Shown here: piece after piece, positions 669 through 19,593 of the stretch
Numbering within the stretch: the stretch's first letter is position 1
Layout of the letters: every line of letters begins with the position of its first letter
Assembly (NCBI GenBank): GCA_001275005.1
Contig: JWZX01001359.1
Span: forward strand, 1-20,263
Reading direction: 5' to 3'
DNA length: 20,263 nucleotides
From: Chrysochromulina tobinii
Taxonomy: Eukaryota; Haptophyta; Prymnesiales; Chrysochromulinaceae
The notes under the pieces: generated by a model
What the model was told of the DNA's origin: nothing
What the model saw: only the letters and a program-made list of their open reading frames with translations
Database searches by the model: none
Program-made: the position numbers and the translations under genes

Positions 669-733
669 GAACTCACACAGGCGTCTCCCTACTCGTCGCC
701 GAAACCACTGGCGCGCTCGCTCCAGCCTCGTTC

Positions 734-3700
734 ATGACCATCCTCCGCCTCCTCGCGCGCCAGACGCGCCTCCCCGGCGCCACTGACAACACGCGATTCG
801 GCGAGGGCCGCGCGTCCCCCCGCAGCTTCCTCACGCACCACGTTGCCAACATCTCCACCGCCATGAAGCCGCCGACGCCCAAAGTCGCGTCTGTCGTGTT
901 AACGTTCACACAGGCACACAGAGGGCGCCACAAGGAGATGATCACACTCTTCGCCGCCACGCCGCCTCACCCGCAGGAGCTCCTCGCAGCGCGCGAGATC
1001 CGTCGCTACATCTTCTGTAGTACCGGTGTCCTGAGCAACATTTCGTTGCGTGGTTGCGGCGATGCCATCCTAGACGAGGCGCGCGGAAACGTCGTGCTGC
1101 TCACTGCCGCCTGTGCGCGCAAAGCTCGCGGTCCGGAAGACGCGACGCTGCGCGCCGTCTCGAACTTGGAGGGCGAAGCGCTCCTCGTGCACCACTCCGT
1201 CGAGCGCAACCCCTTCGTCGTCGGGGGCGGCAGTGCGCTCGGCTTGCTCTACGGAGCGTACCACTTTGCCGAGATCGCCCTCGGCGTACACTTTGGCATC
1301 GGCGGCGACATCTGCGTGCAGAGGATCTGGGCAGGCTATCTCGCTGACGCTTCGCGCGCGCTCCGGGAGCGCGGCGGCGTGCGCGCGCCGCGCTTCGCGA
1401 CGCGCGGTCTCAACCCTTTCCACGATTTTTTCGAGGGGCCTGATCTATGGGAAAAAGGGAACTACAAGATTTACGGCGCGCAGATGGCGAAGCTGCGGCT
1501 AAACGTGCTGGTCTTGCACAACTACAACGACTACCAAGAGGAAGGCGCCGTATATGGAGCTGGGTACGCCGAGCCGACGGTCTGGCTCGGCCCACCGTCA
1601 GACGTGGATGGCCTTGGGCACGTGCACTCGTCGTACGCCAACGGCACCATGCCAATCAGCTGGGCCTCCACATGCATCTCCAAGGACGGCGCTCCGCCGG
1701 TGCCGACCGGGTCGTTTGTGAGCGGCGCCGCGCTCCTTTTTGGCACCCCCTGCGTGCAGGAGCGCTGGCAGCCGTTGTCCGCAGCGGTCGATACCGTCGA
1801 GGCGCACGTTGCCGCCTTCAACGACGCCTCCAGTCTGTTTGGTGAAGTGTTCCCGCCGCTGCGAGCGCGCGGCGTGAAGAGTGCGATCGGCTCGGAGGTG
1901 CCGTCAGCACCGCCGAAGGTGTTCAATACGACGCTGGTCTACCTAAATGCCTTCCGCGCTCCATCCGACAGCCTGCTCACCTCGGGTTACTACGCTTGTG
2001 AGTACTCGACCAAGTGTGACTGGATGTGTGGGACGATCGCGCAAGGCAGGCGCCTGGCGTGTGCGCCCGAATTCGACTACCAGGAGCCGTACCTTCATCA
2101 CAACGTCCAAGGATGGGTGCTCGCCAACCAAGCCGCGGGCACGCTGCCCCTGGCCACGTACTACAACGGCTCCAAAGCGTCGCCCGGGAACACGTTGCTC
2201 TGTGTGGAAGAGGAAGAGGGTTCGCGCTGCAATTACATGCCGTGCTGCAATTATGTGCGCGTGCGGGCCGAGGGGTACGTCTACCCACCTTCGGTGCGGC
2301 AGGACGCGCTCCCAGAGGGGATCAACCTCGGCACCGACCTGTACCCGCTGCGGCTTTGGAGGTGCAACGCCACCAGCCTCGATCACGGTCGTGCGCGCGG
2401 AGATCCGCAGCCCTGTGATCCAGCCTCGGGCGACATGATGGCCACCTCGTCGCCGCTGCTCGAGCAGGACGCGGCGGCGATGGGGTACGTGCCTTGCGCG
2501 CACATAGGCCAAGTCTTCCGCCACCGGCCGCGCGCGTGGCTGCAATCGACCTACGAGGGCGCGCTGTCCCGGGCGACACGTGCCTTCCAGCTCGACTATT
2601 TCTGGCTGTGGACGCAGGAGGTGTGGAATGCGCGAGACCCGTTTGGCAGCCATGGGAACGCTTCGTGGGCTGCGGTGGGCAGCGACGCGGTGCAGACCGC
2701 CGTGGACGACTTCCTCGCCCTCGACGGCGCGCGGCACGCCCTCGGCCTCTCCGATAGTCTTGGCCTCGTCACAGGAGGCTGGACCCTCGGCCCACGCCAG
2801 CAGCGCGCCTACTTTGACTCAGTGCTGCCCCAAGGCTGGGCGCTCGCATCGCTCGATGAGCTGCTCGGTACGGTAGACGTGGAGCCCGAGTACGCGAACG
2901 TGACGCGCCACCCGTCGATCGTCATGCCCTGGCTCGAGGACGATCCGCATTTGGGTGTCAGCCAGCTCTGGGTCAGCCGCACGCTTGCGCACCTCGAGCA
3001 GGGCGCCGTGTTGGGCGCGACGGGCGCCGTGCCGATCACGTGGCGCATGGAGGCGATTGCGCCCACGCTGTATGCGGCCTCGCGGGCGAGCTGGGAGGCG
3101 AATCTCACCGCGCGCCAGGTGTGGCAAGATTGGTCCACTGGCGAGTTTGGCCTCACCTCCAAGGCGCACGCAGACGCCTTTGCGACGGCGTGGCTGGACC
3201 TCGAGGGCATCGAGGGCACTCTGACCTTCGCCGGCTGCCCGGGCACGGTGCAATTCTGCTCCGACGGCGCGGCCATCGACGATGTAGAGCGGCGAGTGCT
3301 CAGCCTGCTGTTGCTCGCGCCGCTCGTGTCGCCCTCCCCCGAACATGCCGACCGCTGGCGCAAATGGAGCTCGCTGCTCACGTATACCGTCGCCGCAGCG
3401 CGCGCCGCGTGCGTGGCGGACGAGTACAAGGGCTTCGCGGCGCAGGCGCGCGCGCTGCCGCCCTCGGATGAGCGACGCGCCCTCGCGAACGACACCCTTC
3501 TTCCACTGAAGCAGCGGATGGTGGCCGCAGCTACCAACCTGACCACGTTGCTGCTCGAGGCGACGGACGGGCCGGGGGAGATGGGTATGCTTGCGACGCT
3601 CCACTTGAGTGTTCTCTTCCTTGAGGCCAGCGACAGTGGCTTTGGCGAGAACCTGCTCAATCAGAGCGCGGCAAACGAACTCGAGATCTGGCTAGGGGGC

Positions 3701-4102
3701 GCGCTGCCGCCCTCAGCGCGCCTGCCCGCCCCCGGCTTCCGTGGCACCGAGCGGATCGTCTGCCTGGAGCCACGCTCGACCGCGGACTTTGCCGAGATGA
3801 TGCAGCTCAGCGTGAGTATCCTCTCTGTACCACAGCCTGTTCCTCTCCGGGTCAGCGTGACCGCCTTCCATCGCCCGCTCGGCCAGGGCAAGTGGATTCC
3901 AGTGCCCATGTCCGTTCACGGCACCCAGGGGCAAGTGTACCGAGTTAGTCTACCCGTGGATGCACACGGCGGCGAGGACTTTGAGTACTACATCCGCGCT
4001 GACCTGGTGGAGGGAACATCCTTGTACTGGCCGCCAGGCGCGCCGGAGCGCACGCAGACGGTAGTCGTGATGGGCGGCCCCGAGGCTCCCAAAATGTCCT
4101 GA
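734..4102 (+). CDS. Putative secreted glycoside hydrolase, GH20/GH67-like N-domain plus TIM barrel
   Basis: The 1122-aa product probably cleaves a glycosidic bond in a polysaccharide or glycoprotein glycan; the substrate cannot be read from sequence. Residues about 70-210 look like the alpha/beta 'domain 2' in front of GH20 and GH67 barrels (PQELLAAREIRRYI, then SALGLLYGAYHFAE). The barrel starts near RGLNPFHDFFEGPDLW (224-239), followed by MAKLRLNVLVLHNY and EPTVWLGPP. Candidate catalytic segments are DYFWLWTQEVW (621-631, Glu629) and PWLEDDPHLGVSQLWVSR (Glu735, Asp736, Asp737). Residues about 421-596 are a Cys-rich insertion that I do not expect in bacterial relatives, and about 1020-1110 form a C-terminal beta domain. 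About eleven N-X-S/T sequons suggest passage through the secretory pathway, yet no signal peptide follows the ATG. A pyrimidine-rich stretch ending TTCACACAG (913) could be a splice acceptor, so the true N-terminus may lie on an upstream exon. Family identity is from pattern memory only. Confidence 0.7.
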   Translation: MTILRLLARQTRLPGATDNTRFGEGRASPRSFLTHHVANISTAMKPPTPKVASVVLTFTQAHRGRHKEMITLFAATPPHPQELLAAREIRRYIFCSTGVLSNISLRGCGDAILDEARGNVVLLTAACARKARGPEDATLRAVSNLEGEALLVHHSVERNPFVVGGGSALGLLYGAYHFAEIALGVHFGIGGDICVQRIWAGYLADASRALRERGGVRAPRFATRGLNPFHDFFEGPDLWEKGNYKIYGAQMAKLRLNVLVLHNYNDYQEEGAVYGAGYAEPTVWLGPPSDVDGLGHVHSSYANGTMPISWASTCISKDGAPPVPTGSFVSGAALLFGTPCVQERWQPLSAAVDTVEAHVAAFNDASSLFGEVFPPLRARGVKSAIGSEVPSAPPKVFNTTLVYLNAFRAPSDSLLTSGYYACEYSTKCDWMCGTIAQGRRLACAPEFDYQEPYLHHNVQGWVLANQAAGTLPLATYYNGSKASPGNTLLCVEEEEGSRCNYMPCCNYVRVRAEGYVYPPSVRQDALPEGINLGTDLYPLRLWRCNATSLDHGRARGDPQPCDPASGDMMATSSPLLEQDAAAMGYVPCAHIGQVFRHRPRAWLQSTYEGALSRATRAFQLDYFWLWTQEVWNARDPFGSHGNASWAAVGSDAVQTAVDDFLALDGARHALGLSDSLGLVTGGWTLGPRQQRAYFDSVLPQGWALASLDELLGTVDVEPEYANVTRHPSIVMPWLEDDPHLGVSQLWVSRTLAHLEQGAVLGATGAVPITWRMEAIAPTLYAASRASWEANLTARQVWQDWSTGEFGLTSKAHADAFATAWLDLEGIEGTLTFAGCPGTVQFCSDGAAIDDVERRVLSLLLLAPLVSPSPEHADRWRKWSSLLTYTVAAARAACVADEYKGFAAQARALPPSDERRALANDTLLPLKQRMVAAATNLTTLLLEATDGPGEMGMLATLHLSVLFLEASDSGFGENLLNQSAANELEIWLGGALPPSARLPAPGFRGTERIVCLEPRSTADFAEMMQLSVSILSVPQPVPLRVSVTAFHRPLGQGKWIPVPMSVHGTQGQVYRVSLPVDAHGGEDFEYYIRADLVEGTSLYWPPGAPERTQTVVVMGGPEAPKMS

Positions 4103-4683: not shown

Positions 4684-5919
4684 TCATCGACCGTGCTGCT
4701 GCCTGTAGCGCGCGCCGAAGCTGCCTGACTCATTGTACTTCAGGTGCCCAAACTGCCCCTCTTGCATGGGGAAAGAGCGCTCACCGGCATGCGGGAACCA
4801 GCACATGATGTCATCCCACGGTCCGACTGCCGGGCTCGGCGGCACCTGCTCCAACTCGGACAGCTGGTTGCCGTACATGTACGAGTTGGCCCCGTGGTAG
4901 AGCCCGTCATAATACGCAGTCAGAGGGCGCTGCGGATGCGGAAACATGTTATGCGTGCCCATCATATCGAAGCAGAGCCCGCCCATCCCGGGCATGAGGC
5001 GCAGCAGGTCAAAGGGCTCGCCGAGGTTGGCTTGCTTCATCAGCCACGGTGAGAACTCATAGAGGACGTACCGAAAGCGCAACGCCCGAAGGGAGTTGAT
5101 CGCGCCACGAAGGACCTTAAGTTCATAGCCCTGCGTGTCGATCTTGAGCAGATGCACGCTCGATGCCCACGACGGCAGCACCGAGTCGAGGCGCACCGAG
5201 GGGACTTCTATCGTATTACTGCGCCCTCGAGCAGCTGCCAAGGAGCCCAGCGCACCATTATTGCCGCTACGGGGCAGAGAGACGGTGGTGTCTTCGTCGC
5301 CCACGGCCGCATGGATGATGTACGCAAAGCCGCCGTGCTGAGGCCTCCGAAGCGGTGGGAGCTCCCATCCCTTGCCACTCGCATCTCTGTGCAACTGGAC
5401 GAATTGCACGTTTTGGGCATTCCCATACCTTGCACGGATGTTGGCCAGGTTGTCGGGCATGGGCTCAAAGGCGAGGACGACAAAGCCGTTCTGCACCGCC
5501 GCCATCGTCTCCGCTGCGTCTTCACCCAGTCCGATGTCAACAATGATCGAGCCGAATCCCCCAGCAAAGATAGTCTTCGGTGGCTGCATGTTGCCCGCGC
5601 CGCACTGCCACTCACGAAGCAGCCCATGGATCCCATCAGATAGGTCTGCAAGCTCTGCACGGCCGCGATGCTTGCCGTGGTACGGGCGAGTCCCATCTTG
5701 TTGAAGTGCTCTTGAGCTCGTGGGTGCTGTGAGCTCCTCCCGCTTCAAGATGCTGCTCGCTTTCCTCTCTGCCGCTAGCGCATCACCACCACCACCCACC
5801 CGGTCAGTTTGCAATCGTCGACCGACGGATAGGCATGTACCAGCGGCTCCAATGAAAACGCCAACAAGGACCGCGCCGAGGAGCGCGGCCAGAGAAGAAG
5901 AAGTCACGTTCTGAACCAT
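4684..5919 (-). CDS. Membrane-anchored FkbM-family methyltransferase
   Basis: The 411-aa protein starts at a good context (GCCATGG). Residues 9-31 form one hydrophobic segment (LAALLGAVLVGVFIGAAG) with no clear cleavage site, so a type II anchor with a lumenal catalytic domain is likely. The SAM-binding core begins at SIIVDIGLGEDAAE (Asp128, Gly130, Gly132), followed by VLAFEPMPDNLANI (Glu152, expected to contact the SAM ribose). The FkbM hallmark LLKIDTQGYELKVLRGA follows at 258-273 (Asp261, Gly264, Glu266). Members of this family O-methylate sugars or small metabolites using S-adenosylmethionine; a Golgi-type anchor suggests a glycan acceptor, which is inference. Motif I reads DIGLGED rather than the usual DIGANxG, a mild deviation. 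It is convergent with the glycoside hydrolase at 734 and divergent from the CDC6 gene across 336 bp. Confidence 0.85.
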   Translation of the reverse strand: MVQNVTSSSLAALLGAVLVGVFIGAAGTCLSVGRRLQTDRVGGGGDALAAERKASSILKREELTAPTSSRALQQDGTRPYHGKHRGRAELADLSDGIHGLLREWQCGAGNMQPPKTIFAGGFGSIIVDIGLGEDAAETMAAVQNGFVVLAFEPMPDNLANIRARYGNAQNVQFVQLHRDASGKGWELPPLRRPQHGGFAYIIHAAVGDEDTTVSLPRSGNNGALGSLAAARGRSNTIEVPSVRLDSVLPSWASSVHLLKIDTQGYELKVLRGAINSLRALRFRYVLYEFSPWLMKQANLGEPFDLLRLMPGMGGLCFDMMGTHNMFPHPQRPLTAYYDGLYHGANSYMYGNQLSELEQVPPSPAVGPWDDIMCWFPHAGERSFPMQEGQFGHLKYNESGSFGARYRQQHGR

Positions 5920-6120
5920 GGCTCTTGCTTCCTCGATGACAGTTGCAATTGGCTGTGACGCGCTGTCGTTTCGTGAAACTAAAAGAGGGGGGTGACATAC
6001 GAAAAATGAATATGTTGGGTGCTCAGCTCGTCTTGATCAAGATACAAGACCAAGAGGTGACGCGACATGTAGTGTGGTTCTGCCCTCCGGATCGCGCGCG
6101 CGGTTGGCACCTGGTGTTTT

Positions 6121-6150
6121 GACTTGACTTGACTTGACCTGACTTGACTT
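6121..6150. repeat. Pentanucleotide tandem repeat (GACTT)n
   Basis: Six consecutive GACTT units fill 30 bp; the fourth is GACCT. A poly-T run follows directly. It lies 106 bp before the CDC6 start codon. It may be a simple microsatellite or a clustered TTGAC-type factor site. Confidence 0.8.
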
Positions 6151-6162
6151 TTTTTCCTTTGT

Positions 6163-6170
6163 CTTCGCGC
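6163..6170 (+). promoter_or_regulatory. Possible E2F site upstream of CDC6
   Basis: CTTCGCGC matches the E2F consensus TTTSSCGC at 7 of 8 positions and lies 86 bp before the CDC6 start codon. CDC6 is a classical E2F target in animals and plants, which makes the position suggestive. One such near-match in GC-rich DNA can easily arise by chance. Confidence 0.25.
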
Positions 6171-6255
6171 CACAAGTCTCCACCGCGGCTGCGCCAACAC
6201 TCCACCAACCTTCTCGGCAGAGCGTGCCGTCAGCGGCACTTCGCCTCGCGCAAGA

Positions 6256-9200
6256 ATGCTCCCGAGCACCAAGCGCCCCTTTGACGGTGGCACCTCGCAC
6301 CTGTCCGCTTACGAGGCCAAACGCGCCAAGAACATGGAGGACAATGCCGAGGTGCGCTCACTCACAATTGGCGGCCCTACTGCCTTCTTCTCACAATGCC
6401 CCGTGTTTTCCGTTCTCTCGGCAGGAGCTGCGCAAGCTCGGGCTCATGGGGAGCATCGTCCCAAAGGCCAGTGCCCCGACGGTCTCGGGCGGCGCGATGG
6501 TGCGCTCCTCCGATCCGGATGCAGCGCTCAAGGCGCCGGCGAGGCTGCTGCCATCAACCCTGTGGCAGCAGTCGGTCGCGGCGCTGCCGTCCGCCAAGAC
6601 GCGCGCCCAGCAGCTGGCCGATGACCTTCTGACCGACTGCGAAGTATGCGGCGGCGGCGACGACGAGCCAAACAACGAGCTGCTGCTCTGCGACAGGGAA
6701 GGCTGCGGGCGTGGCTACCACCAAAGGTGCCTCAATCCCATTCTCGAGCGCGTGCCGAAGCGCCGATGGCTGTGCCCCGAGTGCGTCGAGGCCTTCGGGG
6801 CGACTGGACCCGTGCCAGACGCCGGTGTGATGGGCTGCGCTGACGACGCGGCCGACTCCGTCGGCGCGACCCCGAGGGCGCCCGACAGCTGGTCGTCGTC
6901 GGCGGCGACGGCCTTTGGCGCCGCCTCGGCCTCGGCGGGATGCTCCTGCTCTGCAGCCGGGGCGGCGGCGGCGGCGGCCCTCGGCGGCAGCAACGCCACG
7001 GGCGCGGCCGACGCCCTCGACGCGGCCTCGGCAGCGGGTGTGGCGCGGGACTGGTGCACGCGCCGCCGCTCGATGTTGCAGCAGGCGCGCGCGGCGCTGC
7101 ACCTGGCGACGGTGCCTGCCGCGCTGCTGTGCCGCGAGGAGCAGCTGCGCACCGTACTCGACTTTTGCGGCGAGCGCCTCGCCGCTGGCCAGGGCGGCGC
7201 CATGTACGTCTCTGGCTCCCCGGGGCTAGGTAAAAGCCTCACCATTCGGCAGGCACACGATCGACTGGCTGAGGAGCTCTCTCCTTCGCACCGGCTCGCA
7301 CTCGTCAACGCCTTTCACCTCGCGTCGCCCGCGGCGGTGTATGCCACGCTGCTCGCCGAGCTCGGCGCCGAGCCGCGCGAGGCCGGTGAGGCCGGCGGCT
7401 CCGCTGCCATCACGCGGCGTCCAGAGGCTGAGGCTCGGATGGCGTTCGAGGCGTTCATCTTGCGCAGCGACGCGCCGGCGGCCTCTGGAGGTGGCAATGG
7501 CGGCGGCAAGCGCGCCGCACCCAAGGCCGCCGCGCACATGCCTGTGCCCGCCGCTAATCCGCCCAGGGCGGCGTCGGCCAAGGGAGCGATTGCCAAGGAG
7601 ATGGCAGCCCCGGAGGCGGCAGGTGCGAACAGGTGCGACGGCATGCAACCCTCGCGACCGACTCGGAAGCGGCGCGGCGCGGCCGAAGGCGTTGAGCCCG
7701 GGGCTGCTACCGCCACCGGAGCCGAAGCCGAGGGCGAGGGCGTCTGCGAGGGCACATTCGACGACGACGACGGCGGCGGCGCGGGTGACTCAATGGAATT
7801 CATCGAGAGAGCGGCCGAGGGCGTCGGCCGACCTCTTAAGGCGCGCTCCAAGATGGCTGCACACGCTATCGGCTCGCCGGGGAGCGACGGTGAGGCACCC
7901 GCACTGCTGTCACCGGTGCATGGCGAGGCGCTCGGATCGCCATCCGTCGACCCTGGCAGCCAGCGCCGCTTGCCCACCATGTTTCAGTCGATTCCTGCCG
8001 CCTCGCAGAGGGCAGCAGCACCGCCGCCGAGCCTGCTGCCCTCGCGCGTCGCGTCGCGCTCTGGCCGGACGGCGCCGCCCGGCAGCGTCGTACTGCCCAG
8101 CAGCGTCGTGGGGTCAACGCCCAGCAGTGCCATGGCTGGGGCCTACTGTGGCGGCGCCGCGCCCCCTGGCAGCGTCGCGCCGCTCCGCAGCGCGATGGTG
8201 CCGCGCAGTGCTGCCGCGCCGATGACCTCAGCGCCGCCCATGTCGGTGACCAGCAGCGATGGCGGCCCAACGATCGGCCGGCCGGCGGCTCCCATTGAGG
8301 AGCGGCGCCAGTCGCCTCGCGCGCATGCCTCCTCGGCCGCCCGTGCCGCCGCTGCCGCAGAGGAGACGGGCGCTTGCGACGGTGGTGTCGGCGACGCTCG
8401 TGTCCTCGCGCCCATCCCGATGGCGATGCCACTGGCTTCGGCGGCGACGGTGGACGATGGTTATCCGGTGGCTCCGTGCAGCGCCATGAAGCGTATCTCG
8501 CCACGTGGCAACCCCTCAACCGCGGCACAGCTCGCCGCGGCCGCGGCCGCGGCGCGCGAGCCCTCATCTTCCTCGGGTGCCTCGAACAGCAGCAGGCGCA
8601 TCGCTCAGCAAGATCAAGACTGGCTCGAGATCATGCACAGCCAGTCTGATGACGGGTCCGGCGCCGCCGCGGGCGGCGCGCCGGCTGCGAGCGGCGCGGC
8701 TGCTGGCGCGCCCTCTCCTGCCAGCGGCAGTGTCGGCGTCGTCGTCGGTGACAGCGCCTTTAGCGCGCGACTGCCCAAGTCTGCGCGTCCGAAGCCAGCG
8801 CCGCTCGCAATCGTCGCGGCCGAGGCGGCGGCGTTTGCAGGCGCGGACGGATCGGCCTCGAGCGCGCCACCCACGGACCAGCTGCACGTGGGTAAGCAGG
8901 TACGCGCCAAGTACGCTGCCTCGATGCCGAAGGCGAAGCGGCCGCGCAACAAGTTCGTTGACCGCTGGTACACGGCGGTTGTGACGGCCGTGCATGCGGA
9001 TGGCTCGTGCGATGTCACGTACGACACCGACGGCGTCGTCGAGTACGGCGTCCTTCCCGCGTATGTCAGAGCGCTCTCGAGCGTCGACTTCGCCTCGCCG
9101 AACGTCGCCGGGCCGCCCTCGCGCGCCCCCGGCGAGGCGCCCTCATATCCCGCCCTGCTCAATGCCCAGCTGCCAAAGGTCGATGCATCTTCGGCGGCTG

Positions 9201-12200
9201 CCTTGGCGGCTTCCGCCTCGGGGCCGCGCGCGCTGGCAACGGCGTCCGACACGGCGGCCGGCAGCGATTTGCCGTTTGGCGCGGCCTCTGCAGTGGGCGA
9301 GAAGCTGCAGGCGCAGGACTCGCGCTCGGGGATCTGGTACGACGCCAAGGTCGTCAAGATTGACGGCGAGGGCGACGGGTGCTCTCTCAAGGTGCACTAC
9401 ATGGGATGGAAGGCACGCTTCGACGAGTGGATCCGGGTCGACCAGGGGCGGCTCCGGGCGATGGGCGCGCCCTCGCCGCGCGCGCCTCAGCCTGACGGCT
9501 CCGCGCCCGAGGCGGAAGACGACGACGAGGCGGCGGCCGTGGAAGCTCACGATGATACGGCGCCTTCGGAGGAGAAGCCCATGTGCGATCGCCTGTACGG
9601 CGTCGAGTGCGGCGTGGGCGATATGATGCACGCCAAGGATAGCTACGGCAAGTGGTACGACGCCAAGGTCGTTGAGGTGCGCGGTGAGGGCGAGTCGCGC
9701 GAGCTCAAGGTGCACTACATGGGGTGGAAGGCGCGCTTTGACGAGTGGATGCAAGTTGGAATCGGGCGGCTGAAGCCCAAGGGTGGTCCCTCGCCGCCAC
9801 GCACGCTCGAGGAGATGGCTGCTGCCAGGGAGGCTGCCGAGCGCGAGGCGGCGGACAAGGCTGAGGCTGCGGCTGAGGCTGCGGCGGCGGCGAAAGCGCT
9901 TGCTGAGGCCGAGGCTCAGGCGAAGGCGAAGGCAAAAGCGAAGGCGAAGGCCGAGGCTACTTCGGCAAAGGCCGAGGCGGCGAAGGCCGAGGCGGCGAAG
10001 GCCGAGGCGGCGAAGGCGAAGGCAGCGGAGGGGGAACATGCGAAACGTCTCGACTACGATCCCTCGAGCTTCGGGGTTGATAGCGTCATCGGCGATCGCC
10101 TGCAAGCCCAGGACAACAAGGGCCACTGGTATGACGCAAAAGTAGTGGATGTGCGCTGCGAGGGCCTCGACCGCGACGTCAAGGTGCATTACATGGGTTG
10201 GAGGACGCGCTATGACGAGTGGATCCTCGTGACGGACCGACGGCTGCGGCCCATCGGGGCGAGCTCACCACCAGCGCATCGGGCCGGGCCCCCACAGAAG
10301 AGCCCACCTCGGCAGAGACCCTCGGCAGAGGAGGCACCGCGCGAGGACGCAAAGATGCTCGATCCGGACTTTGGCAACGACGCTGTCGTGGGCGATAAGC
10401 TAAGAGCGATGGACTCACGCGGCGACTTCTACGACGCACGCGTGGTGGCTGTTGATGACGAGGGTGAGACCCGCTCGCTGCGCATCCACTTTCTTGGCTG
10501 GAACAAGCGATGGGATGAGTGGGTCGAGGTCGGCGCCGGGCGGCTGATGGAAATCGGCGCGCTGTCGCCATGTGTGGTCCAGCCGGACGGGAGTGCGCCA
10601 GAAGACGAACATTTCGGCACCTTGCTGCAACCCGGCGACTACCTCGAGGCTCGTGATTCCATTCATGGCAAGTGGTATCACGCCAGGGTGGTCGACACTG
10701 AGGGCGAGGGCTTCGATAGGCAACTTCTCGTGCACTTTCTTGGGTGGAAGGCCAAGTGGGATGAATGGGTTCCTGTCGGCGAGGGTCGGCTGCTTCCATG
10801 GGGCACTCCGGCGCCCGACGAGGAGGGGGAAGAGGAGGGTGAGGAGGAGGAGGCGGAGGGGGAGGGGGCGGAGGCGGAGGCGGAGGAGGCGGAGGAGGGG
10901 CAGGAAGCGATGAAAGAGGCGATGGATACGGAGGAAGATCCCGCATTTGCAGTCGACGCTGCGGTGGGCGACTGGCTGCGGGCCAAGGACAGCTACGGCA
11001 CGTGGCACGATGCCAAGATCATCGAGCTCAAAGGCGAGTGCAAGGCGCGCGAGGTCAAGGTTCATTATAACCGATGGAACAAGCGTTGGGATGAGTGGAT
11101 CGAGGTCGGCGCCGGGCGACTGAAGACGATCGATGCGCCGTCGCCGTGCGAGATCCAGCCGGACGGGAGCGCACCCGAGGCCGAGGCGGAGGAGGAGGAG
11201 CCGGAGGAGGAGGAGCCTGAGGAGGAGCCTGAGGAGGAGCCTGAGGAGGATGACAACGAGGAGCAGGAGGACGGCGGGAAGGCAGAGCTTGACCCATCTT
11301 TCGGCAACGACCTTGTCGTGGGCGATAAGCTAAGAGCGATGGACTCAAAGGGGAAATTTTACGACGCACGCGTGGTGGCTGTTGATGACGAGGGTGAGAC
11401 CCGCTCGCTGCGCGTCCACTTTCTTGGCTGGAACAAGCGATGGGATGAGTGGGTCGAGGTTGGCGCCGGGCGGCTGATGAAAATCGGCGCGCTGTCGCCA
11501 TGCGTGGTCCAGCCGGACGGGAGTGCGCCCGAAGACGAGGCGGGGGAGGAGGCGGAAGAGCCCGATGAGGAGCCTGATGAGGAGCCTGATGAGGATGACA
11601 ACGAGGAGCAGGAGGACGAGGAGTCCAAACCAGCTGCGGCTCCCAATCCTTCTTTTGGTATTCACTCCTCAGTGGGCGAGAAGCTGCAGGCGCAGGACTC
11701 GCGCTCGGGGATCTGGTACGACGCCAAGGTCGTCAAGATTGACGGCGAGGGCGACGGGTGCTCTCTCAAGGTGCACTACATGGGATGGAAGGCACGCTTC
11801 GACGAGTGGATCCGGGTCGACCAGGGGCGGCTCCGGGCGATGGGCGCGCCCTCGCCGCGCGCGCCTCAGCCTGACGGCTCCGCGCCCGAGGCGGAAGACG
11901 ACGATGAGGCGGCGGCCGTGGAAGCCAAGGAGCCCCCTCCGCCGCCCCCGCCTCCCTCGATGAGCTACGAGAACTATGGCGTCGACGCCAAGGTAGGCGA
12001 CGCACTCGAGGCGCTCGACGTGCTTGGGAAGTGGCATTCGGCGCGCGTCGTGCAACTCGAGGGCGAGGGCATGGCGCGCACGGTCCTCGTACACTTCCCC
12101 GGTTGGAACGCAAAGCGATGGGATGAGTGGATTCAAGTAGGCACGGGGCGGCTCAAGCCCCTAGGTGCTCCAGCGCCCAGCGCCCCGCCTGCTCAGATGC

Positions 12201-14507
12201 ACTTGAAGGCGCGTTTGGAGGCCACCGCAGCGGAGGATGACGAGCAGCCGATGGCGGTTGAAGAGGAGGAGGAGGAGGAGGAGGACAATGAGGACGACGA
12301 GCCGGTGGCCGAGGCGGTGGCCGAGGCAGCTGCTGAGCTAGCTGAGCGCGACGAGGACGCGGCCATGTACGGCGTGTGCCTGGCCGCTGGCGACAAGCTC
12401 GAGGCAAAGGACCCGTACGGTAACTGGTACGTCGCCAAGGTGATTGGTGTGCGCGGCGAGGGCGAGACGCGCGAGGTCAAGGTGCACTACATGGGGTGGA
12501 AGGCGCGCTTTGACGAGTGGGTGCATGTGGGCACCGGGCGGCTGAAGCCCGAGGGTGGTCCCTCGCCGCCGCGGCCCGCGTCTGACGCGATGATCGCGCT
12601 CCTCAAAGCTCCCGAGGCGACCAAGGGCGCGTCTTCCCTCAAGGGCCTCTCACGTCGCGACAAGGGGTTGTCCACCGCGATGCTCATCTCGGTGGGCGGC
12701 AGCCGCCGCGCCGTGGCGAGCGCCTCGAGCGCCTCGCGCTCGCTCGTGCCCTATGAGCTCACTGGAGCGGTGGCGCAGCCATCGAACAGGCGAACGACCC
12801 ACGCCCAAGGCGGCCGGCGCGCGCGGCGGCGCGCTTGGCGCCGGCGGCGGGCGCGCGGGCGGCATGTGCATTGTGGTGCTCGACGAGCTCGACCAGCTTG
12901 TGAGCCGCCAGCAGGCGATCCTGTACTACCTCTTCGAGCTCGCGGCCCGGCCTGGCTCGCGCTTGGTGCTCATCGGCGTCGCGAACGCGCTCGACTTGAT
13001 CGACCACTCGCTGCCGCGGCTCGATGCCAAGGGGGCGGCGCCAACACTGCTCAAGTTCAACCCATACTCTCACGACGAGCTCTCGTCGATCATCCAGCAG
13101 CGTTTGGAGCCCATCGAGGCGACGCTCGGCACGACGCTCGTCGATCGGATGGCGGTGACCTTTGCGGCCAAGAAGGTGGCGGCCGCATCGGGCGACGCGC
13201 GCCGCGCGCTCGAGGTATGCCGCGTTGCTGCCGACAAGGCGATCGCCGAGCTCAAGGACTTTGAGGAACGTTTGCCACCGCCGCCGAGCCGCACAGCGCG
13301 CGCCGCGCCCTACGGCGCGCCGTACATGATGCGCGGCAAGTCGCCGCTCGCTCCGCGCCCATCGCCCCTCATCAGCGATGCCGAGCGGCAGCGCGCGTCC
13401 ACAGCCGCAGCGAGCGGCGCTGCCGGCGTGAGCTGCGGCGCCGGCGCGGGCGCGACGCCCAGTTGCACGCCGAGCGGGGCCGGAGCGCTGACGGCGGGCG
13501 CTGAGGTCTCGCGACTCGCGTTGCGGCCGCAGTTGCCACCGCGGCTGCCTGTGTCGGCCAGGGGGTCGGCCGTGCCGCCCTCGTCCGTTGGATCCGACGC
13601 ATCTGCCGCCTCGGCTGCCTCCACGGCCATCGCCACTGCTCCGGGCATGCTGCCGCCGCCCGCCTCTGCGTCTGCCGCCTCGAGCGCCGCCGGTTCGTCC
13701 TCCGCGGGCTCATCCTCTGGCGCAGCCGCGGGCGCCTCTGCGGACGTCTCCGGCGGCACCGAGCTGCTTCCCGCGTGGTCCGCGGACCCGCCGATCCGCT
13801 TCGATCACATGAAAGATGCGCTCGGCGTCGCGTTCCGCAGTGCTTCGTTCCAATTGCTCAAGTCGCTGCCGCACCACCAGTCACTCATCTTGTGCACGAT
13901 GGTGCTGCGCATGCGTCGGCTGACTCAGCAGGTGCGGGACGAGGCGGCGCGAGCGGCCGAGGCGGCCAAGAGGGCGGCCGAGGATGCGGCCGAGGCGGCG
14001 GCCAAGGAGGCGTGCACGCGCGAAGGCCCGGAGGCGGAGGCTGGTGCCGAGGCTGACCGCGGTGCGGATGCGGCCGAGGGTCACACCTCCGACGGTGCCG
14101 TCGCCAAGGTTGCCGCCGCCGCCAGGGGCAACGGGCGCGGCAGCGGTCGGACGACGAGCGCCGCCGCGGCAGCGGCTGCCGCCGCTGCGAGTGCCGCAGC
14201 CGTGAGCCGCGCGGCCGCGCTCGCAGCGGCCACGGGCGGGCACGAGCGGTGTACAATCAACATGCTGTCGGCGGAGTACGACAAGCTGTGCGCGAAGGCG
14301 AAGCTGCCTGCGCTCTCGCGGCAGGAGCTCGCCAACATGTGCGAGAACCTCGCCGTGTGCGGGCTACTCGGGCTCGGCGGCGCCACCGGCCGCCCCTCGC
14401 CCCACGAGAAACTGCAGCGCGCCGTTTGGCTGTGCATTTCGCAGGACGATCTGGAGCTCGCTACGTCCGAGCTGCGCGTATTCAAGCAGATGCTCGCGAC
14501 GAGCTGA
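6256..14507 (+). CDS. CDC6: CDC6-type replication licensing ATPase with PHD finger and inserted Tudor-knot array
   Basis: CDC6 is the AAA+ ATPase that binds ORC at origins and helps load the MCM helicase. Proposed model: exon 1 6256-6351, intron 6352-6424, a long exon to about 12.7 kb, one further small intron or frameshift, then a last exon to the TGA at 14505-14507; with 12746-12809 as intron 2 the product is about 2704 aa. Order: KR-rich N-terminus (possible NLS, 6-25); PHD finger 104-152 (Cys104, 107, 121, 126, His131, Cys134, 149, 152); AAA+ N-half with Walker A GSPGLGKS (296-303); Ala/Ser-rich linker from about 385; Tudor-like domain about 852-915; ten Tudor-knot repeats 983-2081; Walker B VVLDELDQL (Asp2164, Glu2165); sensor 1 LIGVANALDL (Asn2198); LPRL; sensor 2 ASGDARRALEVC (Arg2270/2271); winged helix about 2470-2704 with an Ala/Glu-rich insertion. 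VLDELDQL, the LIGVAN...LPRL block and GDARRALEVC fit CDC6 better than ORC1. Usual CDC6 length is about 500-600 aa. The ATG at 6256 is preferred over 6224 because it makes exon 1 splice in frame to ELRKLGLMGS. Confidence 0.8.
6352..6424 (+). other. Intron 1 of the CDC6 gene (73 nt)
   Basis: Donor GAG|GTGCGCTCACTCAC and acceptor TTCTCTCGGCAG|GAGCTG. The 3' half is pyrimidine-rich (CTTCTTCTCACAATGCCCCG). Removing it joins exon 1 (32 codons from the ATG at 6256) in phase 0 to the frame carrying the PHD finger. The same donor hexamer occurs in the intron at 15452-15554. Confidence 0.7.
8876..9080 (+). other. Tudor-like domain preceding the repeat array
   Basis: Residues about 852-915 of the CDC6 product read LHVGKQVRAKY, RWYTAVVTAV, GSCDVTYDTDGVVEYG, then VLPAYVRAL. 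The pattern (VGxxVxA, WYxAxVxxV, YDxDGxxEYGV, xxxYVR) is that of a plant-type Tudor or Agenet-like barrel. It is distinct from the ten Tudor-knot units that follow. Its ligand is unknown; related folds bind methylated lysine or arginine. Confidence 0.5.
9291..9546 (+). repeat. 256-bp direct repeat, copy 1 (Tudor-knot unit 1)
   Basis: Identical to 11670-11925 except for one synonymous base (C at 9526, T at 11905, both Asp). It covers unit 1 and its QPDGSAPEAEDDDEAAAVEA linker. The 2379-bp offset is a multiple of three, so the frame is kept. Confidence 0.95.
9968..10012 (+). repeat. 15-bp tandem repeat coding for KAEAA
   Basis: Three exact copies of AAGGCCGAGGCGGCG, followed by a decayed unit (AAGGCGAAGGCAGCG). 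It sits in a charged Ala/Lys/Glu linker (9810-10060) between Tudor-knot units 2 and 3, predicted to form a long single helix. Confidence 0.9.
10370..10607 (+). repeat. Direct repeat pair, Tudor-knot unit 4 (copy at 11300-11537)
   Basis: Unit 4 and unit 7 align at a constant offset of 930 bp, with long identical stretches including the GTGGGCGATAAGCTAAGAGC start and the CAGCCGGACGGGAGTGCGCC end. Differences are concentrated around the loop between the AMDS and YDARVV segments (SRGDF versus SKGKF). Roughly nine bases in ten agree by eye. Confidence 0.85.
11670..11925 (+). repeat. 256-bp direct repeat, copy 2 (Tudor-knot unit 8)
   Basis: Partner of 9291-9546 with 255 of 256 bases the same. The flanks are unrelated, so the duplicated block is sharply bounded. 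Identity at third codon positions shows a recent duplication or gene conversion. Confidence 0.95.
12746..12809 (+). other. Candidate intron 2 of the CDC6 gene (boundaries uncertain)
   Basis: The Tudor-array frame and the Walker B frame differ by one register. Frame 2 is open to 13264 and the Walker B frame is open from 12594, so the switch must fall between the end of the array and Walker B at 12864. Intron 12746-12809 (donor GTGCCC, acceptor CCCAAG, 64 nt, phase 0) restores the frame. Other frame-compatible choices are 12692-12809, 12713-12809, 12667-12778 and 12670-12778. None has a strong pyrimidine tract. A one-base sequencing error or a real frameshift would give the same picture. Confidence 0.35.
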
Positions 14508-17555: not shown

Positions 17556-19412
17556 CTACGCGGCGGGCGCGCACGCACGATCCGGCTCAAGCCGGAACAG
17601 CGCCACGTCATGCGGGGCGACGGTTTGGCTTATCGTGGCGTTCATACCCAGCCCTGTGAGATTGCGCCCGCCCCAGATGTCGTGCGCGATCCACCCACAG
17701 CTGGGTGCGGGCCGTAGGCGAGAGAGCTGTACGGACAGTGTCTGCGGCAGAGGAGCGCGATTGAAGAGCGCGATCGCCCAGCCACCGCCTTCGAGTCCGG
17801 CAGCGTACACCTCGTTCGTCTGCGCTGCGGTGAAGTTCGTCGAGAGGCACATCCCCTTCTGCGAGACGGACCGTATCAGCGTGCCGGGGTGCTCCGGATG
17901 GGCGTCGCCGGGTGTCGCAGGGTCGATCTCCCACCACCAACCCTGCCGATCGCTCGGGACGGCGCCTGGCACGCGGTCGCAACGATCCAGAAGTGGCACG
18001 TCCCCGGAGCTTGGCGCGGTGAGGCAGAGTAACGGTGCGGCAGGATCGCTATTGTTCTGGGTGACGTTTGCCACCAGCGCCCACGGAGAGTCCGTCGGCC
18101 GGTGCGTAGGGGCGGCTGGGGTGAAAACCTGTGTGGGGAATGGAACATCGCCGATGACGCAAGGGTCTTTGGACCAGTCATCGCACTGCCGAATGATCAA
18201 CGGCGAGGTGGCGCTCGGCTCGCAGCTGAGCACGGAGAGGCAGTGCGTGACCGAGCCTGCATTGCGCACGCGCGGGAAGGGGGGGGTCGTCACGCCCACC
18301 ACCGGCATACTGACCCTCCCCTCGTATGAGCTTCCCCACAGCTGCTGCGGGTCGCTTGGGACGCATGGGCGCAGCACGGAGACCGTCGCTGTCTCGGCAT
18401 GGTAGCCCGGGTAGAAGTCGTCGAGGGGCTCCGCCTGTAGCCCGAGGGGATCCTCATGGATGCGGCGCAGCTCCTTGTTCTTGACGATCTGCAAGATCTC
18501 GGCTGACATCCGCGACGCGTCCGCGCCGAGCAGCAGCGGTGACTTGAGGACAGACCAAAGGGTGAAGTGGCTTCGCGCCTCAGCTAAGGTGAGCCCAGGC
18601 CCGCCCCAAGAGAAGTTTGACGGCAGCGCGCCGATCTCCAGCATGTCCATGTCGTTCCACCCGCCGGGGCCGGCGTATCGCGCCAGCTGTGGGATCGCGT
18701 TAGCCCCGTTCAGACCCTGGATGATGTTGAGCCAGCCGTCCGCGATGTCCCCGTTGACTCTCCACATATTGCCCACGCCGTTTCCCCACGTCCACGGCTC
18801 TGCATAACCCTCGGCGCAAACAGAGTGGACCATCGGCCGGCCCGTCGCGTTGATCGCGTCGCGATACTCACGCCACGTCTCCTCATCCACCGGCCCACCA
18901 CACGCGTCCACCTCGATAAAGTCGGCGCCCCATCTCGCAAACGTTTCCATGTCGATCGCGACGTGCCCTGTGGGGCCGCTTCCAGAGCCGACACATCCGC
19001 CGCACGTTAAGTCGCCGATGTCGGTGTAGATCCCGAGCTTCATCCCACGCTCCTTGAGGAACCTGCCAAAGGCTGCCATGCCATGCGGCCAGCGCTCCCG
19101 GTACTCACCCGTCTCGGTGAGCTCGCCCGTCAGAGGATCGCGCGGGCCGAAGCAAGGCTCCTGCACCACAAAGTAGCTGAAGCCACCTTCGCCAACGAGG
19201 TCGGCGTCCACTAGCGCTTGCGCCCAGTGTTGGCACTGTGACTCATTCACACTGCGCATGATCCATTGTTCGGGCACGCACGTTGGTGGGGAACACGACC
19301 GATTTTTCTCCGAGGTGAACGGCCAAATGTTCCACGTCGCGAATCCGCGAGGCGGCGTCCGCGCGAGGCCGTTGTCCCACACGGTCACCGTCGCAGGAAG
19401 CCAAGCCAGCAT
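17556..19412 (-). CDS. GH27 alpha-galactosidase with inserted R-type-lectin-like domain
   Basis: The 618-aa protein is a retaining exo-glycosidase of family GH27 (alpha-galactosidase or alpha-N-acetylgalactosaminidase), a lysosomal or secreted enzyme removing terminal alpha-linked galactose. The barrel opens DNGLARTPPRGFATWN (13-28). KLGIYTDIGDLTC (125-137) and FIEVDACGG (165-173) place the nucleophile at Asp169; MWRVNGDIADGW (216-227) places the acid/base at Asp222; GGWNDMDMLEIG (250-261) and HFTLWSVLKSPLLLGAD complete the signature. The C-terminal beta domain is about 543-608 (GGWAIALFNR to DVALFRL). Between barrel and beta domain, residues about 349-540 are extra: repeated CLxxxxxxxPLxxxxC patterns (HCLSVLSC..PLIIRQC; LLCLTAPSSGDVPLLDRC) and a Trp-rich GWWWEIDP suggest a beta-trefoil (CBM13/ricin-B-like) carbohydrate-binding module. 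Usual GH27 length is about 400 aa. The start is forced: an in-frame TGA lies 9 bp upstream with no AG between. Only 12 residues precede the barrel, so no full signal peptide is visible despite several N-glycosylation sequons. Confidence 0.85.
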   Translation of the reverse strand: MLAWLPATVTVWDNGLARTPPRGFATWNIWPFTSEKNRSCSPPTCVPEQWIMRSVNESQCQHWAQALVDADLVGEGGFSYFVVQEPCFGPRDPLTGELTETGEYRERWPHGMAAFGRFLKERGMKLGIYTDIGDLTCGGCVGSGSGPTGHVAIDMETFARWGADFIEVDACGGPVDEETWREYRDAINATGRPMVHSVCAEGYAEPWTWGNGVGNMWRVNGDIADGWLNIIQGLNGANAIPQLARYAGPGGWNDMDMLEIGALPSNFSWGGPGLTLAEARSHFTLWSVLKSPLLLGADASRMSAEILQIVKNKELRRIHEDPLGLQAEPLDDFYPGYHAETATVSVLRPCVPSDPQQLWGSSYEGRVSMPVVGVTTPPFPRVRNAGSVTHCLSVLSCEPSATSPLIIRQCDDWSKDPCVIGDVPFPTQVFTPAAPTHRPTDSPWALVANVTQNNSDPAAPLLCLTAPSSGDVPLLDRCDRVPGAVPSDRQGWWWEIDPATPGDAHPEHPGTLIRSVSQKGMCLSTNFTAAQTNEVYAAGLEGGGWAIALFNRAPLPQTLSVQLSRLRPAPSCGWIAHDIWGGRNLTGLGMNATISQTVAPHDVALFRLEPDRACAPAA

Positions 19413-19424
19413 CCGAACCGGTCA

Positions 19425-19593
19425 ACGTTCTCCTTTCATCAGGGCACACTCGTACCGGTAAAAAGACACCGGGGGAGCCGGGACACTCATCACGGGACAC
19501 ACGGGACACGTTCTCTTTCATCAGGGCACACTCGTACCGGTAAAAAGACACCGGGGGAGCCGGGACACTCATCACGGGACACACGGGACACGT
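19425..19593 (+). repeat. Two tandem copies of an 82-83 bp unit
   Basis: Each unit runs from ACGTTCTC(C)TTTCATCAGG through GTACCGGTAAAAAGACACC and GGGACACTCATCACGGGACA to CACGGGACACGT. Copy 1 starts at 19425 and copy 2 at 19508; they differ by one inserted C at the start. The core contains the palindrome TACCGGTA and a shorter internal repeat of CACGGGACA. The block begins 13 bp upstream of the alpha-galactosidase ATG, so on the minus strand it occupies that gene's 5' leader or promoter. Confidence 0.9.

What the first reader, a model, noticed from the sequence alone, without database searches (positions are those of the whole stretch)
7214..12884. CDC6 AAA+ ATPase split between Walker A and Walker B by about 1,860 residues
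Walker A (GSPGLGKS, about residue 296) and Walker B (VVLDELD, about residue 2160) belong to one nucleotide-binding fold and are normally about 70-110 residues apart. Here the sequence after Walker A continues as CDC6 for some 80 residues, to about EAFILRSDAPAASGG, then enters a low-complexity linker, a Tudor-like domain and ten Tudor-knot repeats, and re-enters the fold just before Walker B. The N-terminal half and the array are in one open frame, so they are physically fused. I know of no described CDC6 or ORC1 with this arrangement. It suggests a licensing ATPase with a multivalent chromatin-binding loop emerging next to its active site.
Basis: partly seen in the sequence, partly recalled or inferred. 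Interest (0 to 1): 0.95.

Follow-up and report, generated by a model that had tools for sequence, protein, structure and literature searches.

The report
Algal CDC6 split by chromatin-reader array
In a freshwater haptophyte alga, the gene for the DNA-replication licensing ATPase CDC6 appears to carry, inside its ATP-binding domain, a huge loop with ten Tudor-type chromatin-binding modules, an unusual protein design.

Summary
The window is a contig of the haptophyte Chrysochromulina tobinii. In detail: Walker A (7214-7237) and Walker B (12873-12893) of one CDC6-type AAA+ domain lie 1,883 codons apart (68-191 in the 100 of 120 retrieved proteins where both motifs were found), with ten Tudor-knots between. 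N-half, linker and array share one open frame. The Walker B half is one base out of frame here, but a separate JGI protein (P0003, 877 of 888 residues identical) runs unbroken from the last two knots to the stop, so no intron is needed there. Prymnesium and other PHD-CDC6 relatives have 34-113 residues at the same loop, predicted disordered in P0004. So a disordered loop took up a reader array. The claim that it emerges next to the active site is not supported: the loop enters at the far edge of the sheet. Not shown: transcripts, and the N-side linker beyond 8033, where the only other protein (P0062) diverges. Most likely one protein of about 2,725 residues whose loop tethers CDC6 to methylated nucleosomes or DNA. 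New variant of a known kind.

The parts
6256..6351 (+). exon 1 (ATG; MLPSTKRPF...NAE)
   Evidence: NCBI model P0001 starts here; relative P0004 has a similar N-terminus
6352..6424 (+). intron 1 (73 nt, GT-AG)
   Evidence: P0001 reads NAE|ELRKLGL across it; boundaries read from the sequence
6638..6784 (+). PHD finger
   Evidence: Pfam PF00628 E=5.8e-10; also in P0004, P0059, P0060, P0061, P0062
7064..7492 (+). CDC6/ORC1-type AAA+ domain, N-terminal half
   Evidence: PDB ORC1 2.2e-12, CDC6 2.4e-6; elsewhere in the held genome matches only the ORC1 of C2205
7214..7237 (+). Walker A GSPGLGKS
   Evidence: sequence; Lys codon 7232
7493..8884 (+). low-complexity linker, open in the same frame; insertion starts here
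   Evidence: 6 of 1000 shuffles stop-free in a given frame; first 540 nt in the same frame in P0062, which diverges at 8033
8885..9100 (+). possible Agenet/Tudor-like segment (unconfirmed)
   Evidence: Agenet E=0.031, below cut-off
9293..9466 (+). Tudor-knot 1
   Evidence: Pfam E=4.4e-6; identical to knot 8
9614..9787 (+). Tudor-knot 2
   Evidence: Pfam E=9.5e-7
10088..10261 (+). Tudor-knot 3
   Evidence: Pfam E=2.6e-4, 21.3 bits against a cut-off of 20.8
10388..10561 (+). Tudor-knot 4
   Evidence: Pfam E=1.8e-8
10631..10804 (+). Tudor-knot 5
   Evidence: Pfam E=2.1e-5
10964..11137 (+). Tudor-knot 6
   Evidence: Pfam E=9.4e-10
11318..11491 (+). Tudor-knot 7
   Evidence: Pfam E=1.4e-9
11672..11845 (+). 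Tudor-knot 8
   Evidence: identical over 195 nt to knot 1
11993..12166 (+). Tudor-knot 9
   Evidence: Pfam E=9.4e-6; present in P0003
12386..12559 (+). Tudor-knot 10
   Evidence: Pfam E=4.6e-6; present in P0003
12560..12872 (+). bridge from array to Walker B strand; one-base frame change near 12800 in this assembly, unbroken in P0003
12873..12893 (+). Walker B VVLDELD
   Evidence: sequence; aligned with CDC6 Walker B
13065..13235 (+). Cdc6/ORC-like ATPase lid
   Evidence: Pfam PF22606 E=2.4e-10
14211..14450 (+). CDC6 C-terminal winged helix
   Evidence: Pfam PF09079 E=3e-9
14505..14507 (+). stop codon

Best explanation
It is the only CDC6-type gene detected in the held Chrysochromulina tobinii genome, coding for one protein of about 2,725 residues: PHD finger, first half of the AAA+ domain, a low-complexity linker, ten Tudor-knot modules joined by acidic or K/A/E-rich spacers, then the second half of the AAA+ domain, lid and winged helix. 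PHD-CDC6 proteins of this clade already have a variable, low-complexity loop between the helix after strand 2 and the Walker B strand; here that loop acquired and expanded a reader array. The AAA+ halves fold together as in normal CDC6 and the array leaves the fold as a giant loop on the sheet edge away from the nucleotide. The knots keep most residues of the PHF20L1 Tudor1 methyl-lysine pocket, so the loop (with the PHD) most likely tethers CDC6 to methylated nucleosomes, or to DNA, helping to place or retain it at ORC-bound sites. Shown: gene layout, domain identities, C-side fusion in a second sequence source, shared insertion point. Inferred: translation through the whole array, correct folding, chromatin binding, role in licensing.
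For: One open frame from PHD through the tenth knot, unlikely by chance in the linker (6 of 1000) and array (0 of 1000). JGI protein P0003 (cluster of 39 members, contig of 4608 bases) is unbroken from knots 9-10 through Walker B to its end, 11 of 888 residues different. Each CDC6 half was found once in the genome; the only other hit is C2205, an ORC1 with BAH matches. The two halves are complementary; the insertion falls where P0004, P0005, P0059, P0060 and P0061 carry linkers of 113, 55, 34, 41 and 46 residues, disordered in the AF2 model of P0004, the one modelled. Window plus these five form one clade (98/94). Knots evolve as protein: pN<pS in 36 of 36 pairs of the nine distinct units. Pocket residues of PHF20L1 Tudor1 (Y24, Y29, F47, W50, Y54, plus D23 and E56; PMC13285377, abstract and passages), placed by the alignment: D23, W50 and E56 kept in 10 of 10 knots, aromatic at F47 and Y54 in 10 of 10, Tyr at Y29 in 8 of 10. 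A 5.3-kb intron would be odd in a genome averaging one intron per gene and 1,899-bp genes (PMC4580454, passages).
Against: No transcript or protein data. The N-side linker beyond 8033 rests on one assembly: P0062 (apparently the same gene, 5 of 529 residues different) then leaves the window's sequence for its last 14 residues, which could be a contig end, a variant or a real stop. The C-half is one base out of frame in the window; I read this as an error of the 454/Illumina assembly, not proven. Two 261-nt stretches are 99% identical, so the number of knots could be misassembled. The NCBI model P0001, from a MAKER2 pipeline that used RNA-seq, has further introns that cut the PHD, several knots and Walker B and keep only 4 knots by motif; I judge these introns spurious from conservation alone, and they might in part be RNA-supported. 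The Y24 pocket position is non-aromatic in 10 of 10 knots. The N-half scores closer to ORC1 than to CDC6.
Confidence: 0.69

Rival explanations
1. The array is genomic but is removed, wholly or in some isoforms, by splicing from 7.5 kb to 12.8 kb, so that most CDC6 protein has a normal short loop and the array is an alternative exon or a nested gene.
For: Relatives P0059, P0060, P0005, P0061 and P0004 have only 34-113 residues at this point. The NCBI model, whose pipeline used RNA-seq, invokes several introns in the region.
Against: Both flanks are in the array's frame (N side in the window; C side in P0003), which a removed intron or nested gene would not need; linker stop-free by chance in only 6 of 1000; introns in this genome are few and genes short (PMC4580454 passages).
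Confidence: 0.15
2. Assembly artefact: repeats caused a Tudor-array gene to be joined to CDC6, or the array to be mis-sized; the real gene differs.
For: 454/Illumina/Phrap hybrid assembly (PMC4580454 passages); 261-nt near-identical repeats at 9286-9546 and 11665-11925 and 92% repeats at 10357-10608 and 11287-11538; P0062 diverges within the linker.
Against: A separate source has the same C-side fusion (P0003). The N-half reads in frame through the linker into the first knot. Outside C526 the array DNA has only partial matches in the held genome: best by score 76% over 193 bases, shorter ones up to 90% over 60 bases, the listed ones in spacer parts (40 of 326 candidates scored). A repeat-driven error would change the number of knots rather than create both junctions (inference).
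Confidence: 0.1
3. Split gene: two proteins, PHD plus AAA+ N-half ending in the linker, and array plus AAA+ C-half, which pair in trans.
For: P0062 ends shortly after the N-half; P0003 starts inside the array.
Against: Both ends can be explained by short contigs (2121 and 4608 bases), and P0003 begins inside a near-identical repeat (11840); in the window the frame is continuous.
Confidence: 0.06

Closest known systems
PHD-CDC6 proteins of haptophytes and close relatives (Prymnesium parvum P0059, Prymnesium sp. P0060, unnamed ENA protein P0004)
   Same: PHD finger, AAA+ core, Cdc6_C winged helix (not found by Pfam in P0060), one clade (98/94), low-complexity linker at the same point before Walker B
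   Different: Linker of 34-113 residues and no Tudor-knots, against about 1,800 residues with ten
Drosophila and human CDC6 (7jgr_G, 8s0e_G)
   Different: No PHD (recalled) and no such insertion; normal Walker spacing
ORC1 with BAH (C. tobinii C2205; plant ORC1 with PHD and BAH, recalled)
   Same: Replication initiator AAA+ carrying chromatin-reader domains
   Different: ORC1 readers sit at the N-terminus, not inside the AAA+ fold; C2205 is a separate gene
PHF20/PHF20L1 Tudor1, MRG2/MRG15/Eaf3 and MYST chromo-barrels
   Same: Knot profile matches PHF20L1 Tudor1 at 1.4e-12 and MRG2 (4pl6) at 1.2e-9; model of one knot is a small five-strand barrel, Foldseek E about 2e-3
   Different: Those proteins are not AAA+ ATPases and have one or a few barrels (recalled)

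Membership tests
CDC6 (eukaryotic licensing ATPase) | Walker A and Walker B of an initiator-type AAA+ domain | tested here: met
   GSPGLGKS and VVLDELD aligned with CDC6/ORC1; Pfam AAA_16 and AAA
CDC6 (eukaryotic licensing ATPase) | Walker motifs at normal spacing in one contiguous fold | tested here: not met
   1,883 codons against 68-191 in the 100 of 120 retrieved proteins where both motifs were found by pattern
CDC6 (eukaryotic licensing ATPase) | Cdc6/ORC lid and Cdc6_C winged helix | tested here: met
   PF22606 E=2.4e-10, PF09079 E=3e-9
CDC6 (eukaryotic licensing ATPase) | Closer to CDC6 than to ORC1 | tested here: inconclusive
   C-half: CDC6 106 bits, ORC1 74. N-half: ORC1 50, CDC6 30. 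Tree parts its clade from two ORC1 rows (98/96), but the deep split from animal and fungal CDC6 is weak, 69/77. A separate BAH-ORC1 exists.
CDC6 (eukaryotic licensing ATPase) | ATP-dependent MCM2-7 loading with ORC | not testable with these tools
   needs biochemistry
ORC1 | N-terminal BAH domain | tested here: not met
   no BAH among the families listed for the window's two ORFs at E up to 1; C2205 matches BAH structures. Not all ORC1 proteins have BAH (recalled).
Tudor-knot / chromo-barrel | Pfam PF11717 over the gathering score | tested here: met
   9 of 9 distinct units
Tudor-knot / chromo-barrel | Methyl-lysine aromatic pocket | tested here: inconclusive
   by sequence only: aromatic at F47, W50 and Y54 positions 10 of 10, Tyr at Y29 8 of 10, aromatic at Y24 0 of 10; binding not tested

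The most novel reading that the evidence does not exclude
A replication-licensing ATPase whose nucleotide-binding domain is interrupted by a multivalent methyl-lysine or nucleosome-reading loop, so that CDC6 itself, not only ORC, is targeted by chromatin marks, and chromatin engagement could strain or relieve the AAA+ domain and so gate licensing.
Probability: 0.35. Interest if true: 0.82.

Novelty: new variant of a known kind. Interest (0 to 1): 0.66.

Why it matters
CDC6 is an essential ATPase of replication licensing (established knowledge); in the 100 of 120 retrieved proteins where both motifs were found, Walker A and B lie within 191 residues. A CDC6-type gene, single in the held genome, that seems to tolerate about 1,800 residues of reader modules inside the fold would show where a AAA+ initiator can accept cargo, and would suggest a lineage that reads chromatin through CDC6 as well as ORC1. 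It gives a testable case for how histone marks direct origin licensing, and the series short linker, longer linker, array suggests how such an insertion could arise stepwise.

Tried and rejected
Intron at the array-to-Walker-B junction: dropped, because P0003 reads through. Frame change as loss of function: judged unlikely, since the gene is the only CDC6-type copy found, though the held genome is 53 Mb of a reported 59 Mb. NCBI model P0001: not used as a guide to exons, since it cuts out Walker B and half the PHD, both present in relatives. Array as a recent copy of another gene: no full-length copy seen in the genome (only 40 of 326 candidates scored, partial matches in spacer parts); the nearest protein-level match outside the window is a chromodomain plus Tudor-knot ORF on C471. 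P0062's last residues were not found in any frame of the window (best chance match 8 of 15). One scan of viral contigs gave no relative; in the metagenome collection no scan was available, so the DNA of P0003 and P0062 was not seen and their JGI source is taken to be metagenomic by inference. The organisms of P0004, P0005 and P0061 are not named; I place them with haptophytes by the tree only. Protein searches are limited: one search scored only the 7978 candidates sharing most words and only 7985, so other CDC6 proteins with arrays could be missed. Papers: of nine searches, aimed at this architecture (0, 3, 1, 0, 3 papers), at AAA+ insertions (42 papers, 12 listed), at PHF20L1 (7), at the organisms; I saw listings with titles and abstract starts, and nothing there suggests a described CDC6 with Tudor-knots. 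I read passages found by term of PMC4580454, PMC8222357, PMC7450096 and PMC13285377, and no paper in full.

Full report
Source. The window is the whole of contig C526 of a 53.15-Mb genome in 2,253 contigs. The NCBI protein P0001, 'cell division control protein 6-like protein [Chrysochromulina tobinii]', is listed on a contig of the same length, 20263. The organism is a freshwater haptophyte, assembled from 454 and Illumina reads and annotated with MAKER2, which used RNA-seq among other evidence (PMC4580454, passages).

Observation. ORF 6143-13264 carries a PHD finger, the first half of a CDC6/ORC1-type AAA+ domain and ten Tudor-knots; ORF 12594-14507, in another frame, carries the AAA+ second half, the Cdc6/ORC lid and the Cdc6_C winged helix. 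Walker A lysine and Walker B aspartate are 1,883 codons apart. In the 120 proteins retrieved, both motifs were found by pattern in 100, 68-191 residues apart, median 73; the other 20 lacked a pattern match and include P0001, P0003 and P0062. Nine of nine distinct knots pass the Pfam cut-off, the weakest narrowly (21.3 against 20.8 bits), while the proposed Tudor-like segment at 8.9 kb does not. In a given frame, the linker is stop-free in 6 of 1000 dinucleotide shuffles and the array in 0 of 1000.

Is it one coding unit? On the C side, JGI protein P0003 (888 aa, cluster of 39 whose other members I did not see, contig of 4608 bases) runs in one frame from knots 9 and 10 through the bridge into Walker B and on to the end, with 11 of 888 residues different from the window. 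The window differs there by a one-base shift of frame near 12800; since an unbroken copy exists and the assembly used 454 reads, I read this as a probable assembly error, not proven. On the N side, P0062 (also JGI) covers the PHD, the N-half and the first 540 bases of the linker in the same frame (5 of 529 residues different), then departs at 8033 into 14 residues not found in the window. Continuity from 8033 to the first knot therefore rests on the window alone. P0001 joins all parts in one model but removes Walker B, half of the PHD and most knots (4 left by motif), so I do not trust its introns, though some might be RNA-supported. With intron 1 (6352-6424) the protein would have about 2,725 residues (my count).

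CDC6 or ORC1? The Walker B half matches human CDC6 at 106 bits and ORC1 at 74; the N-half prefers ORC1, 50 against 30 bits. The only paralogue found, C2205, is a clear ORC1 (215 bits against 169 for CDC6) with BAH matches. Each half of the window's gene is otherwise found once. A tree of 23 proteins puts the window with five PHD-CDC6 or CDC6 proteins (98/94) apart from two ORC1 rows (98/96), but the deep split from animal and fungal CDC6 is weak (69/77). CDC6 is the better name, by the C-half and by elimination; strictly, membership against ORC1 is inconclusive.

What is the array? The other nine knots are 48-70% identical to knot 10, with fewer nonsynonymous than synonymous differences per site in 36 of 36 pairs of the nine distinct units (pairs share ancestry and are not independent). 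Knots 1 and 8 are identical over 195 nt, within 261 nt at 99%: a recent duplication or an assembly problem. The AF2 model of one knot is a small five-strand barrel (mean pLDDT 72.8), closest to PHF20L1/PHF20 Tudor1 and MRG2 (Foldseek E about 2e-3 to 4e-3, none under 1e-3); by profile PHF20L1 Tudor1 scores 1.4e-12. PHF20L1 Tudor1 binds H3K36me1 with Y24, Y29, F47, W50 and Y54 plus D23, and its tandem Tudors bind DNA and lose methyl selectivity on nucleosomes (PMC13285377, abstract and passages). In the window's knots D23, W50 and E56 are matched in 10 of 10, F47 and Y54 by aromatics in 10 of 10, Y29 by Tyr in 8 of 10 (His in 2), Y24 by no aromatic. Since single mutations of any of the five, Y24 included, reduced or abolished binding in PHF20L1, the same ligand cannot be assumed. 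Methyl-lysine or nucleosome/DNA binding is the likeliest role; it is inferred.

Mechanism. Most likely the AAA+ halves fold as usual and the giant loop, with the PHD, tethers CDC6 to chromatin, raising its local concentration at ORC-bound sites. In Drosophila, N-terminal disordered regions of Orc1, Cdc6 and Cdt1 are dispensable for MCM loading in vitro (PMC7450096, passages), so added flexible chromatin-binding parts need not be part of catalysis; those regions lie outside the AAA+ fold, unlike here.

Novelty. The titles and abstract starts listed by my searches do not suggest a described CDC6 with Tudor-knots, an array within its AAA+ fold, or a haptophyte PHD-CDC6; the listed papers were not read for this. 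Among proteins retrieved, only P0001 and P0003 carry both Tudor-knot and CDC6 domains by the precomputed Pfam column, and by motif. I call it a new variant of a known kind: a CDC6-family ATPase with a new internal architecture. On recheck I lowered confidence from 0.70 to 0.69, giving 0.01 more to splicing, because P0001's pipeline used RNA-seq.

Noticed in passing
P0004, P0059, P0060, P0061, P0062 and window 6638-6784: A PHD finger at the N-terminus of CDC6 in the Prymnesium/Chrysochromulina clade (P0005 lacks its N-terminus); one search listed no paper on it.
   Followed up: partly
G000:C471:14007-22694 (-), in L034 and L035: Another giant ORF (2,896 aa) with a chromodomain, Tudor-knots (three by eye) and a weak C-terminal BRCT match below cut-off, perhaps a damage-response scaffold using the same knot type.
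   Followed up: partly
window 9286-9546 and 11665-11925; 10357-10608 and 11287-11538: Near-identical internal duplications (99% and 92%) in an otherwise diverged array: recent duplication, gene conversion or assembly effect.
   Followed up: partly
G000:C2205, L003:433-2322: ORC1 in one open frame with BAH matches; the only CDC6 paralogue found.
   Followed up: yes
NCBI model P0001: The deposited gene model splices out Walker B, half of the PHD finger and several knots; the annotation probably needs revision.
   Followed up: partly
P0061: This relative has a second, different insertion between the Walker A helix and strand 2, so this CDC6 lineage tolerates insertions at more than one loop.
   Followed up: no
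window 17556-19421 (-) and 4684-6036 (-): Neighbouring genes: alpha-galactosidase A-like (Melibiase_2 plus C-domain) and an FkbM methyltransferase-domain protein.
   Followed up: no
window 671-4102 (+): Long ORF of 1,143 aa with no Pfam match at E up to 0.001.
   Followed up: no
window 19425-19593: Two copies of an 82-bp tandem repeat, 98% alike.
   Followed up: no
window 6119-6150: Short TTGAC-unit repeat about 100 bases upstream of the CDC6 start codon.
   Followed up: no
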